From the NCBI GenBank assembly GCA_030550095.1, contig JAUQQA010000029.1, forward strand, positions 1 to 32,169: 32,169 nucleotides of DNA. Reading direction: 5' to 3'. Positions 25,581 to 30,351 of this stretch are shown here, one piece after another. Position 1 is the first letter of the stretch. Each line of letters begins with the position of its first letter. The notes beneath the pieces were generated by a model, which had not been told where the DNA came from, ran no database searches, and worked only from the letters and a program-made list of their open reading frames with translations. Origin of the DNA: Chloroflexota bacterium (GTDB lineage Bacteria; Chloroflexota; Anaerolineae; J036; Brachytrichaceae). Made by a program: the position numbers and the translations under genes.

Positions 25581-26390
25581 GTGAGCGCCTGGTTCGAGAT
25601 CCGCGATTTGCACGTCAAGGTCGCTGAAGGCGACCGCGAGATCATCAAGGGGCTGAACCTCACCATGAACGAGGGTGAGATTCACGCCATCATGGGGCCG
25701 AACGGCAGCGGCAAGAGCACGCTTGCCTACACCATCGCCGGCCATCCCGGCTACGAAGTGACGGAAGGCGACATCCTCTTCAAGGGGCAGAGCTTGCTGG
25801 AAATGGAGCCAGACGAGCGCAGCCGCTTTGGGGTGTTCCTTGCCTTCCAATACCCTGTGGCGATCTCAGGGGTGACTGTTGCGAACTTCTTGCGCACAGC
25901 GATCAACGCGCGCATCAAAGCCGAAGCTGCGGCGAAGAACGGCGGCGTTGTGCCGCATGATGTGAAGGGCATTCCCATCCCCGTCTTCACCAAGCAACTG
26001 CGCGAAGCATTGCAGCTGCTCAAGGTCGATCAAAGCTTCGCAGGTCGTTACCTCAACGACGGCTTCAGTGGCGGCGAAAAGAAGCGCGCGGAGATCTTGC
26101 AAATGGCGATGCTCAAGCCCGAGTTGGCGATCCTCGACGAGACCGACTCAGGGCTAGACATTGACGCGCTGCGCATCGTCAGCGAGGGCGTGAACACGCT
26201 GCACGACCAGAACCCCAAGATGGGCGTGCTGGTGATCACCCATTACCAGCGCCTGCTCAACTACATCAAGCCGCAATACGTGCATGTGATGATCGACGGG
26301 CGCATCGTCGAGAGCGGCGGCCCAGAGCTGGCGCTGCACCTCGAGGAGAAAGGCTATGACTGGCTGAAAGAGCCAGAGGCAACGCAATGA
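25581..26390 (+). CDS. sufC: Fe-S cluster assembly ATPase SufC
   Basis: ABC-type ATPase of the SUF scaffold complex; it binds SufB and SufD and drives the conformational change for iron-sulfur cluster assembly in the cytoplasm. The 269-residue chain has Walker [10 protein letters not shown] (39-47), Q-loop [11 protein letters not shown] (88-98), signature GFSGGEKKR (161-169) and Walker [14 protein letters not shown] (183-195), all typical of SufC. The start is GTG with AGGAG 9 nt before it, in keeping with the first residues [12 protein letters not shown]. It is first of the three-gene operon and 21 bp ahead of sufB. Confidence 0.96.
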
Positions 26391-26411: not shown

Positions 26412-29042
26412 ATGGCAGAGGGAAAGTCTCAGGTCTCAGTGAATGAGGAGTATCTGGAGAAGTACGGCTTTGCCGAACCGGAGAACTACGTCTTCAAGAG
26501 CCGCAAAGGGCTTGACGAGCAAATCATCAAAGAGATCTCCTGGATGAAAGGCGAGCCGGAGTGGATGACCAAGTTTCGCTTGGCGGCGTTTGAGGTTTTC
26601 CGCAAGAAGCCGATGCCCAACTGGGGGGGCGAAGCGCTGAAGGAGATCAACTTCGACGACATTTACTACTACATCAAACCCACCGACCGCCAAGCAACAA
26701 GCTGGGATGAGCTGCCGCGCGAGATCAAGGAGACCTACGACCGCCTGGGCATCCCCGAGGCAGAGCAAAAGTATCTCGCCGGCGTCGGCGCGCAGTACGA
26801 GTCTGAGGTGGTGTATCACAACCTCGCCAAGGAGCTGGAGGCGAAAGGGGTGATCTTCCTCGACACTGACAGCGCGCTGAAGGAGTACCCTGAGCTGTTC
26901 CGTCAATACTTCGGCACCATTGTGCCTTACACCGACAACAAGTTTGCAGCGCTGAACAGCGCGGTATGGTCGGGTGGCTCGTTCATCTATGTCCCGCCGG
27001 GCGTGAAGGTGGAAATGCCGCTACAGGCGTACTTCCGCATCAACGCCAAGAACGTTGGGCAGTTTGAGCGCACGCTGATCATCGTGGACGAAGGCGCGCA
27101 GGTGCACTACGTCGAAGGTTGTACTGCGCCTGTTTACTCCAGCGACTCACTGCACAGCGCAGTGGTGGAGATCATCGTGAAGAAGGGCGCGCGCTGCCGC
27201 TACACCACCATTCAGAACTGGTCCACAAACGTGTACAACCTCGTCACCAAACGCGCAGCCGCCTACGAGGGCGCGACGATGGAGTGGGTGGACGGCAATT
27301 TAGGGTGCCTTGCCGAAGGTTCACTCGTGACCACGCCTGAAGGCGTGAAGCCTATCGAAGCGCTGGAAGTGGGGGAGCGAGTGCTTTCGTATGATGAGCG
27401 CACAGGGCAACTCTGCTTCCGCCGCGTGTTGGCGAAGCGCTTCTCGGGGTATCAGCGCGTGCACACGGTCTCGGTGGGTGAGCGCAAGCTGCGCGTGACG
27501 GCGAACCACCCGTTCTTCTCGTTCACCTACGACCCGAACGCGCCGAAGAAACGTGGTCGCTATCGCCTTGCCTACGTGCGCGCCGATCGGCTCACGCGCG
27601 CTATCGTCCCGCGCACTTCGATTGACTATGGGCGTCCGCATCCGCTTGTGCTGCCCGCAACAAGCACCACGTTCATCTCGCGCAACCAGTACGCGGAGGC
27701 GTTCTTGGCGCACCGCGAGCGTCCATCGCGGCTTGCTGGCGTCGTGAGCACCACAGACGCGTTGATGTGGCTGTTCGGCTACTGGGTGGGCGATGGCAAC
27801 ATCGAGGTCCAGGAAGCGCAAACCGAGGGTGTGATCCGCTGGGCAAAGGTTGGCTTCTCCACACCGGCAAACGACCGGGCGCGTGAGCGCTTGGTGCAAA
27901 TCATGGCCTCTGTGGTCGAGGCGGAGCCGACCGAACGTCGTGACGGTGCGCATCTCGCTTGGAACAGCGTAGAGCTGGCAGCGTTCTTCCGCTTGAACGG
28001 TTTCAGCGGCAACGCCATGACCAAGCGCGTTCCACAGTGGGTGTGGTCGCTCCCCGAGTCGCAACGCCTTGCTTTCATCGCTGGCTATCTGGACGCAGAT
28101 GGGCACGTGAGTGGTGGACGCTTCCACCTTAAGTCGGTCAACCGCGCTTTGCTTGAGGATGTTGCTTCGCTCCTGGTGACGCTCGGTATCACGCCACGGA
28201 TCCGCGCCGAGTTCGAGACGCCGCGCACGGTCACCATCGGTGATGTTCAATGCACCGCCCACGGTGCCTACCACCTCTCGTTTGCGATAGATGCGCGCTT
28301 CTTCGCGCACCTTAGCCCTGCGCTGCGCTCCAAAGCCGAGCGGCAGCTTCGCAGGATTGCTCAGCGCCGTCGCGTGGGTCGCTCCTCCATCGCGCTGAGC
28401 GAGGCGCTCGAGGTTGTGCGGGTGCAAGTGTCGCCGCTCTCGGAGGAGTTAGTGCCCACGTGGGACATCGAGGTGGAGGAGACGGGCAACTTCGTGTCGC
28501 AGGGGTTCATCGTGCACAACTCCAAGCTCACTATGAAGTATCCCGCCGTGTACCTCATGGAGCCGGGCGCACATGGCGAGATCCTCTCGATCGCCTTCGC
28601 GGGCAAGGGGCAACATCAAGACGCGGGCGGCAAGGTCGTGCATGCCGCGCCTAACACCACCAGCAAGATCATCAGCAAGTCCATCAGCAAAGATGGCGGG
28701 CGCACCAGCTACCGCGGCTTGCTCAAGGTGTATCGCGATGCGGAGAACAGCCGCAGCAACGTGGTCTGCGACGCGCTCTTGCTCGATGAACGCAGCCGCA
28801 GCGACACCTACCCCTACATCGAAGTGGACACCGACAAGGTGATCATCGGGCACGAGGCAAGCGTGAGCAAGATCGGCGAGGAGCAGCTCTTCTACGCCAT
28901 GAGCCGCGGCATCAGCGAGGAAGAGGCGAGCACCATGGTTGTCTCTGGCTTCATCGAGCCGCTGGTGAAGGAGTTGCCGATGGAGTACGCCATGGAGATG
29001 AACCGCCTGATCGCGTTGCAGATGGAGGGTACGGTTGGCTAG
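26412..29042 (+). CDS. sufB: SufB precursor interrupted by an intein
   Basis: SufB is the scaffold on which the iron-sulfur cluster is built together with SufC and SufD. The open frame codes for 876 residues, roughly 400 more than SufB needs. Residues 1-298 and 704-876 (471 in total) read as ordinary SufB: AVWSGGSFIYVPPGVKVEMP, VHYVEGCTAP, YTTIQNWSTNVYNLVTKR, then SKLTMKYPAVYLMEPG and RSDTYPYIEVDTDKV. Residues 299-703 are an intein (separate entry) that must be spliced out to give active protein. A strong GGAGGG site lies 7 nt before the ATG. SufD follows after 19 bp. There is no frameshift; the whole precursor is one continuous frame. Confidence 0.95.
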   Translation: MAEGKSQVSVNEEYLEKYGFAEPENYVFKSRKGLDEQIIKEISWMKGEPEWMTKFRLAAFEVFRKKPMPNWGGEALKEINFDDIYYYIKPTDRQATSWDELPREIKETYDRLGIPEAEQKYLAGVGAQYESEVVYHNLAKELEAKGVIFLDTDSALKEYPELFRQYFGTIVPYTDNKFAALNSAVWSGGSFIYVPPGVKVEMPLQAYFRINAKNVGQFERTLIIVDEGAQVHYVEGCTAPVYSSDSLHSAVVEIIVKKGARCRYTTIQNWSTNVYNLVTKRAAAYEGATMEWVDGNLGCLAEGSLVTTPEGVKPIEALEVGERVLSYDERTGQLCFRRVLAKRFSGYQRVHTVSVGERKLRVTANHPFFSFTYDPNAPKKRGRYRLAYVRADRLTRAIVPRTSIDYGRPHPLVLPATSTTFISRNQYAEAFLAHRERPSRLAGVVSTTDALMWLFGYWVGDGNIEVQEAQTEGVIRWAKVGFSTPANDRARERLVQIMASVVEAEPTERRDGAHLAWNSVELAAFFRLNGFSGNAMTKRVPQWVWSLPESQRLAFIAGYLDADGHVSGGRFHLKSVNRALLEDVASLLVTLGITPRIRAEFETPRTVTIGDVQCTAHGAYHLSFAIDARFFAHLSPALRSKAERQLRRIAQRRRVGRSSIALSEALEVVRVQVSPLSEELVPTWDIEVEETGNFVSQGFIVHNSKLTMKYPAVYLMEPGAHGEILSIAFAGKGQHQDAGGKVVHAAPNTTSKIISKSISKDGGRTSYRGLLKVYRDAENSRSNVVCDALLLDERSRSDTYPYIEVDTDKVIIGHEASVSKIGEEQLFYAMSRGISEEEASTMVVSGFIEPLVKELPMEYAMEMNRLIALQMEGTVG
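27306..28520 (+). mobile_element. SufB intein with LAGLIDADG homing endonuclease
   Basis: A 405-residue self-splicing protein element, residues 299-703 of the SufB precursor. Block A is CLAEGSLVTTPEGV, starting with the nucleophile Cys299. Block B is VTANHPFFSF with Thr363 and His366, the TxxH splicing motif. Endonuclease block C is LFGYWVGDG (454-462) and block E is AGYLDADGH (557-565): two LAGLIDADG motifs about 100 residues apart, both with acidic residues intact, so the nuclease may be active. Block F/G is TWDIEVEETGNF then GFIVHN, ending in His702-Asn703, with Ser704 as the +1 nucleophile. All class 1 splicing residues are present. Base composition resembles the host gene. Confidence 0.95.
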
Positions 29043-29061: not shown

Positions 29062-30351
29062 ATGTCGCTACTTGCCCCCCTGTTGAAACCTGCACCTGTG
29101 GTCAAGGCGGGCGAGCTAGGCCGTGAGCTTGTGCAAGCGTACAGCGCCGCACTCGGCGATCCCGAATGGCTCGCTGATCGGCGCATGGATGCTTTCCGCG
29201 TCTTCCGCGACACGCCTGCGCCCAACCGCCACGATGAGCTCTGGCGCCGCGTGGACCTGAGCTTGTTTAAGCTCGACCAGATTCTGGCTGCGGTGGACCC
29301 TGTGACCAATGGGCTATCCATTGAGCTGCACGCACCGATGAGCGCTGAGATGCTGCACGAGCAAGGCGTGATCTTCACCACCTTCGAGGACGCCGCGCGG
29401 CATCACGTTGACCTGATGCGGCGCTACTTCATGACCGAGTGCGTGAAGGTCACCGACGCCTACTTCGCTGCCCTACACGGTGTGTTTGTGCACGGCGGTG
29501 TGGTGCTCTACGTGCCAGCAGGCGTGAAGATTGAGACGCCGTTCCGCGTCTTCACGCGGATGCGTGCCGATCAGCGCACCGGCTTCGGTCACACCTTGGT
29601 CGTGCTTGAGGAAGGCGCACAAGCCACGCTGATCGAGGACTACGCCACTGAAGGCACGCCCGCGCCAGACGCGCCGCAAGCGATGTACGACGGCGCAGTG
29701 GAGATCATCCTGCACAAAGGTGCGCAGCTCGACTACGTGAGCATCCAGGACTGGGCGCGCAATGTGTACAACTTCACCACTGAGCGCGCGCGCGTGCACG
29801 AAGGCGCCACGTTGCATTGGGTGATCGGCGGGCTAGGCAGCAAGTTCACCAAGAGCCTGATTGAGGCTGACCTGATCGAGCCACACGGCACAGCGCTGCT
29901 CAGCGGCGTGTACTTCGCTGACTCGCGCCAGCAGTTGCACTACGACACGCAGCAAAACCACATCGCGCCAGCGTGCAAGAGCGACCTGCTCTACAAGGCA
30001 GCGCTGCGCGATGAGGCGCGCACGGTTTGGCGCGGCAACATCCGCGTCTTCCCTGGCGCGCAGAAGACGGATGCCTACCAAGCAAACCGCAACTTGCAGC
30101 TCTCCAAGCGCAGCCGCGCCGATTCGATCCCCGGCTTGGAGATCGAAGCCGATGACGTGCGCTGCACGCACGGCAGCACGGTGGGCACGCTCGAAGAAGA
30201 ACCGATCTTCTACCTTCGCTCGCGCGGCATTCCCTACAACGAAGCGCGCCGATTGGTGATCGAGGGCTTCTTCGCCCCTGTGATCGAGCGCATTCCGCTG
30301 CAGGAGACGCGCGAGCGCCTATTGGCGGAGATCGCTAAGAAGATCGGCTAA
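29062..30351 (+). CDS. sufD: Fe-S cluster assembly protein SufD
   Basis: Paralogue of SufB that completes the SufBC2D scaffold and aids iron entry. The 429-residue chain shows the SufB/SufD beta-helix region: GVFVHGGVVLYVPAGVKIETP, HTLVVLEEGAQATLIEDYA, DYVSIQDWARNVYNFTTERA and HWVIGGLGSKFTKSLIEADL, followed by SRADSIPGLEIEADDVRCTHG and the terminal EEEPIFYLRSRGI. I chose the ATG at 29062 for its AGGAG site; the TTG at 29035 overlaps sufB and lacks one. It ends 27 bp before a strong terminator, closing the sufCBD operon. sufS, sufU and sufT are not present. Confidence 0.93.
   Translation: MSLLAPLLKPAPVVKAGELGRELVQAYSAALGDPEWLADRRMDAFRVFRDTPAPNRHDELWRRVDLSLFKLDQILAAVDPVTNGLSIELHAPMSAEMLHEQGVIFTTFEDAARHHVDLMRRYFMTECVKVTDAYFAALHGVFVHGGVVLYVPAGVKIETPFRVFTRMRADQRTGFGHTLVVLEEGAQATLIEDYATEGTPAPDAPQAMYDGAVEIILHKGAQLDYVSIQDWARNVYNFTTERARVHEGATLHWVIGGLGSKFTKSLIEADLIEPHGTALLSGVYFADSRQQLHYDTQQNHIAPACKSDLLYKAALRDEARTVWRGNIRVFPGAQKTDAYQANRNLQLSKRSRADSIPGLEIEADDVRCTHGSTVGTLEEEPIFYLRSRGIPYNEARRLVIEGFFAPVIERIPLQETRERLLAEIAKKIG

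What the first reader, a model, noticed from the sequence alone, without database searches (positions are those of the whole stretch)
29819..29860. Homologous site in SufD is intact
SufB is interrupted between Gly and Ser of GNLG/SKLTM. The paralogous position in SufD, encoded next door, reads GGLGSKFTKS and is not interrupted. The endonuclease thus either distinguishes two related sites in the same operon or has never reached SufD. The sequence differences around this Gly-Ser bound its recognition specificity.
Basis: partly seen in the sequence, partly recalled or inferred. Interest (0 to 1): 0.5.

Follow-up and report, generated by a model that had tools for sequence, protein, structure and literature searches.

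The report
Uninvaded SufD copy of intein site
A mobile protein-splicing element interrupts the iron-sulphur scaffold gene sufB but not the matching spot in its sister gene sufD next door; this is what is expected of a site-specific element, and not by itself a surprise.

Summary
SufB (26412-29042) carries a 405-aa LAGLIDADG intein (27306-28520) between Gly and Ser of VDGNLG/SKLTMK. SufD reads VIGGLG/SKFTKS uninterrupted, junction after base 29838, and alignments support equivalence. Ten of 23 bases at least 95% conserved in 55 intein-bearing SufB sites differ in this SufD, all 8 or more bases from the junction, but the same bases are equally conserved in 90 intein-free SufB sites, so they reflect SufB's protein, not proven endonuclease contacts. 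No sampled SufD carries an insert there (0 of 132); of 54 loci with related inteins in a species-level collection 53 have it in SufB, none in SufD. Most likely SufD is not a homing target. One lead: in the host family all nine intein-bearing SufB alleles use TCN for the +1 serine, 11 of 17 empty ones AGC, and this SufD has AGC; few evolutionary events underlie it. Low interest.

The parts
29827..29850 (+). SufD GGLG|SKFT, position paralogous to the SufB intein site, uninterrupted; Gly|Ser junction after base 29838
29062..30351 (+). sufD, 429 aa (TIGR01981 273.7 bits, cut-off 222)
26412..27305 (+). sufB N-extein, 298 aa, ends VDGNLG
27306..28520 (+). SufB intein, 405 aa, Cys1...His-Asn, with two LAGLIDADG motifs (LFGYWVGDG, FIAGYLDADG)
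28521..29042 (+). sufB C-extein with stop, starts SKLTMKYP
25581..26390 (+). sufC-like ATPase gene just upstream; named by me from its translation, not run against a family library

Best explanation
The SufD site is the ordinary paralogous position in the SufBD beta-helix and is empty because the intein is a site- and allele-specific homing element of sufB. Its endonuclease is most likely adapted to the strictly conserved SufB sequence, of which SufD lacks ten of 23 near-invariant bases, so it probably does not cut SufD well. Even a cut there would rarely lead to insertion, because sufD shares too little homology with the flanks of the intein for repair by copying. Across species the SufD position is variable and often lacks the Ser/Thr/Cys needed for splicing, so it is not a target that a homing cycle could use. 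Shown: equivalence by sequence, emptiness, the base differences, lack of long shared runs, absence of SufD inteins in the sample. Inferred: that the nuclease is active and that it does not cut SufD.
For: SufB +4 to +8 is nearly fixed and SufD is not: T100 M98 K100 Y99 P100 percent in 152 SufB rows (six mis-joined rows still included) against T55 K81 S30 F32 I38 in 132 SufD rows; mean pairwise identity over +-20 bases 0.76 in 90 intein-free SufB and 0.49 in 132 SufD. Identity to the window's empty SufB site over 40 bases: 54 intein-bearing SufB 26-36, 90 intein-free SufB 25-35, 132 SufD 9-24. Ten of 23 bases at least 95% conserved in 55 intein-bearing SufB sites differ in the window's SufD. Longest shared run within 500 bp is 12 bases. 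+1 is Ser, Thr or Cys in 74 of 132 SufD. 0 of 132 SufD have an insert at the site. Of 54 genome-contig loci with a related intein 53 have it in SufB and one holds neither gene. Inteins sit at conserved sites (passages of PMC2814812). Two phage intein endonucleases cut partner sites with 75% and 100% identity over +-20 bases and were specific for the partner gene (passages of PMC5050341).
Against: The separation is narrow: 24 of 40 for this SufD against 25 for the least similar empty SufB, and in intein-free relatives a species' own SufB and SufD sites share up to 28 of 40. Over +-12 bases the SufD site (15 of 24) is no worse than 37 of 90 intein-free SufB sites. Every near-invariant SufB base from -5 to +13 is present in this SufD, and its -1 Gly and +1 Ser would permit splicing. 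LAGLIDADG endonucleases tolerate substitutions (passage of PMC10643990). No cleavage was measured.
Confidence: 0.8

Rival explanations
1. The endonuclease does cut SufD at some rate, but breaks are repaired from a sister chromosome or by end joining and the intein is never copied in, so the empty site says nothing about specificity. (Overlaps with the best explanation, which allows it as second barrier.)
For: All near-invariant SufB bases from -5 to +13 are kept in SufD; no long shared flanks for copying; cut targets without homologous flanks showed damage and microhomology end joining in Haloferax (passages of PMC10643990).
Against: Repeated self-cutting of this operon should be costly (inference); 10 outer near-invariant bases differ.
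Confidence: 0.12
2. The +1/+2 dinucleotide is what matters: TC at the serine codon marks a cuttable allele and AG (as in SufD) a resistant one.
For: In the host family 9 of 9 intein-bearing SufB alleles have TCN at +1 and 11 of 17 intein-free ones AGC (Fisher p 0.0024, not corrected for kinship). In one genus four intein-bearing alleles have TCC or TCT and five empty ones AGC. SufD of the window has AGC.
Against: The tree has only 4 changes of intein state and 4 of codon class. Across the wider sample the association is weak: 47 TCN and 9 AGY with intein, 62 and 27 without, p 0.075 (six mis-joined rows dropped, one empty row with Gly at +1 not counted). The same pattern arises if flanking bases travel with the intein or with an empty allele during gene conversion.
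Confidence: 0.15
3. The endonuclease is dead and the question of SufD does not arise; the intein is only inherited.
For: Some relatives have altered motifs: L065 LDAAG, L041 GEG. Inserts of only 438-564 bp occupy the same site in seven others; the one translated, 152 aa, has no LAGLIDADG motif that I can see. Within the family the inteins group by genus.
Against: The window copy keeps both motif aspartates and the domain evolves with dN well below dS. Relatives at 53-68% identity lie in other classes of the phylum, and at 48-62% in contigs titled as other phyla. The family's intein tree joins the g6 and g8 inteins (support 88), whereas the hosts' SufB/SufD tree joins g6 with g1, so some transfer is likely.
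Confidence: 0.1
4. SufD once carried the intein and lost it.
For: None found.
Against: 0 of 132 SufD with an insertion at the site; the longest tract shared between the genes within 500 bp is 12 bases, so no trace of conversion.
Confidence: 0.02

Closest known systems
Mycobacterium tuberculosis SufB intein
   Same: Intein with an endonuclease domain in SufB, Cys at position 1 and a nucleophile at +1 (passages of PMC8891592)
   Different: It follows Gly252, with His at -5 and Cys at +1. By my inference that is the HYVEG/CTAP position; in the window that position (SufB residues 236/237) is uninterrupted and the intein sits 62 residues further on at GNLG/SK
[quoted passage not shown]
   Same: Several intein sites in one gene, endonucleases that accept sites of related species, and flanking residues that travel with the intein (passages of PMC10643990)
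   Different: Two sites in one gene, not the same site in two paralogous genes
PI-PkoII (2cw7) and the endonuclease of 1dq3 (PI-PfuI, name recalled)
   Same: The only two solved sequences matched by the intein at E up to 0.01 (2.1e-6 and 1e-5)
   Different: Other host genes; best matched stretches are only 60-68 residues of the endonuclease half

Membership tests
SufD (TIGR01981) | profile score over the curated cut-off | tested here: met
   273.7 bits, cut-off 222; the same protein stays below the SufB cut-off (264.4 against 346.4)
SufB (TIGR01980) | profile score over the curated cut-off | tested here: met
   696.9 bits against 346.4, in two stretches
Intein with LAGLIDADG endonuclease | Cys/Ser at position 1, His-Asn at the end, Cys/Ser/Thr at +1 (definition recalled) | tested here: met
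   C1 ... HN | S
Intein with LAGLIDADG endonuclease | profile matches to intein splicing and LAGLIDADG models | tested here: inconclusive
   LAGLIDADG_3 57.8 bits over 22.5 and TIGR01443 23.0 over 15.6 are met; PF14890 Intein_splicing 27.5 bits is below its cut-off of 35.8
Intein with LAGLIDADG endonuclease | in frame, interrupts a protein whose relatives lack the insert | tested here: met
   same site empty in 90 SufB rows and occupied in 56
Intein with LAGLIDADG endonuclease | splicing and DNA cleavage activity | not testable with these tools
   needs an assay

The most novel reading that the evidence does not exclude
Since TCN and AGY serine codons cannot be exchanged by one synonymous change, this would be a stable, protein-silent immunity to an intein.
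Probability: 0.1. Interest if true: 0.45.

Novelty: new member of a known kind. Interest (0 to 1): 0.15.

Why it matters
A paralogous, uninvaded site about 1.3 kb downstream of the intein is a convenient natural control for assays of intein endonuclease specificity, and the family offers many empty and occupied SufB alleles for the same test. It does not change what is known about inteins. The coincidence of the +1 serine codon class with intein state in one bacterial family is a testable hint about co-conversion tracts or target choice.

Tried and rejected
Chance resemblance of the two sites was rejected: gap-free alignment around the site in a 35% identical paralogue pair, and profile alignment to solved SufB and SufD. 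An intein elsewhere in SufD was considered because several SufD hits lie in very long open frames; each of those that I fetched aligns as one uninterrupted piece. A TCN rule for all relatives was considered and weakened by nine intein-bearing alleles with AGY. A short-tract trace of co-conversion in the genus was looked for: identity between intein-bearing and empty alleles dips at codons 299-306 (0.81 against about 0.89 in the neighbouring windows), but with few events this is only suggestive. The motif check at the end used too strict a pattern and is not used. The SufB precursor model is weak (mean pLDDT 74.9, pTM 0.52) and carries no argument here. The phylum-wide profile search gives match counts for its 400 genomes but lists only the best rows, so SufD in most of those genomes was not inspected one by one; 65 genomes with extra or odd hits were. 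Hosts of the weaker intein matches were not all checked. Other phyla were sampled only through the pattern-based scan. Why the sites near residues 130 and 237 of SufB attract other inteins was not pursued.

Full report
What is there. The window holds a suf operon: a sufC-like gene 25581-26390, sufB 26412-29042 and sufD 29062-30351. SufB is interrupted by a 405-aa intein, bases 27306-28520, between VDGNLG and SKLTMKYP. It starts with Cys, ends with His-Asn, is followed by Ser, and holds two LAGLIDADG motifs; LAGLIDADG_3 and the C-terminal splicing model pass their cut-offs, the Pfam splicing-domain model does not. SufD reads VIGGLG|SKFTKS at the paralogous place, junction after base 29838. The own genome (2.35 Mb, 67 contigs, 97% complete) has one SufB, one SufD and one copy of this intein.

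Equivalence. A direct alignment places the two Gly-Ser pairs together without a gap in the 50 residues on either side. A profile of 23 SufD proteins places the pair on Gly-Ser of E. coli SufB and on Gly-Gly of E. coli SufD. The predicted SufD (mean pLDDT 91.5) puts it in a turn between two strands of the beta-helix, and Foldseek matches chains of solved SufB and SufD. No residue-level structural superposition was run.

How the sites differ. Over +-20 bases 24 of 40 are equal, over +-9 bases 10 of 18. To compare, sites were read from the window and 173 fetched loci (L034-L146 and L153-L212), identical rows counted once: 132 SufD sites, and 146 SufB sites after dropping six mis-joined rows, 56 with an insert and 90 without. 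The SufB site is nearly fixed as protein, the SufD site is not. Of 23 bases between -21 and +24 that are at least 95% conserved in 55 intein-bearing SufB sites, the window's SufD differs at ten: -15, -14, -9, -8, +14, +17, +19, +20, +22, +23. None lies within seven bases of the junction. The same ten are 99-100% conserved in the 90 empty SufB sites, and third-position entropy is alike in both groups (1.17 and 1.14 bits). So the differences list what an endonuclease could use, but the conservation itself comes from SufB. The margin is small: SufD shares 24 of 40 bases with the window's SufB site, the least similar empty SufB 25, and in some intein-free relatives the own SufB and SufD sites share 28. 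Over +-12 bases SufD (15 of 24) is not worse than 37 of 90 empty SufB sites.

Why SufD is empty. Three limits probably act together. First, poor recognition at the outer bases (inferred). Second, homing is repair by copying from the intein-bearing allele through homologous recombination; sufB and sufD share no run longer than 12 bases within 500 bp. Haloferax targets cut without homologous flanks showed damage and microhomology end joining (passages of PMC10643990). Third, in 58 of 132 SufD the residue at +1 is not Ser, Thr or Cys, so an intein of this kind could not splice there; among 37 operons whose SufB carries the insert and whose SufD could be read, 18 SufD have Ser, one Thr and 18 neither. 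The window's own SufD would pass the third limit.

Survey. Of 132 SufD none has an insertion at the site (131 with no gap, one lacking a codon). In a profile search of 60 genomes, the own one included, nine SufB are split at this site and no SufD-type hit is split by a long insert. In the phylum 31 of 400 genomes hold a match to the intein at E <= 1e-8. A species-level genome scan gave 54 loci: 53 with the intein in SufB (50 at this site; L136, L139 and L143 near residue 130) and one weak match without SufB or SufD; none in SufD. At least eleven of them are contigs already met, and the scan finds loci by two short peptide patterns, so it misses distant ones. Six viral loci matched weakly (22-29%) and hold neither gene.

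Serine codon. In the host family all nine intein-bearing SufB use TCN for the +1 serine and 11 of 17 empty ones AGC. In the genus labelled g6 the empty clade nests within intein-bearing lineages (midpoint-rooted tree) and the codon changes with the intein state. The simplest reading is that flanking bases travelled with the intein or with an empty allele during gene conversion; a target preference is possible. Over the wider sample the association is weak, and nine intein-bearing alleles have AGY.

Is the endonuclease alive? Both motif aspartates are kept in the window and in 10 of the other 12 inteins compared; L041 and L065 have changes. The domain is under purifying selection in the pairs compared. 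The family's intein tree and SufB/SufD tree disagree on the placement of g6, which suggests some transfer. Activity was not tested.

Literature. Full-text searches for intein with SufD gave the same five papers; passages read in two do not describe a SufD intein, the other three were seen in the listing only. SufB inteins are known, for M. tuberculosis at another site (passages of PMC8891592). I did not find a published name for the GNLG/SK site in the listings; those papers were not read for it, apart from passages of PMC8891592 and PMC5050341.

Verdict. Observation confirmed, interpretation partly supported, ordinary finding with a useful natural control.

Noticed in passing
L065, L064, L037 and others: SufB in relatives has three intein sites (near residues 130, 237 and 298 of the window's extein numbering); some genomes carry two or three inserts in one SufB, up to a 1652-aa open frame.
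   Followed up: partly
L069:2388-2843, and L136, L137, L140, L142, L143, L144: Short inserts of 438-564 bp at the same SufB site; the one translated (L069, 152 aa) shows no LAGLIDADG motif by eye.
   Followed up: no
L038-L041 against L042, L045, L046, L052, L053: Within one genus the empty SufB clade has AGC and the intein-bearing lineages TCC or TCT at +1; the state seems to change together with the intein.
   Followed up: partly
L213 (G000:C9 near 85438): A second LAGLIDADG-containing intein in the same genome, in what reads as a ribonucleotide reductase (named by me from its sequence, not run against a library).
   Followed up: no
L114: A full-length relative (62%) of the intein in SufB of a contig titled Candidatus Gottesmanbacteria, grouping with inteins of Chloroflexi contigs; binning error not excluded.
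   Followed up: partly
L065:508-1698: Intein with an altered second LAGLIDADG motif (LDAAG) on a long branch, as expected for a decaying endonuclease.
   Followed up: no
L042 (G016): SufB broken into pieces by frame shifts near residues 242, 410 and 426, probably sequencing errors.
   Followed up: no
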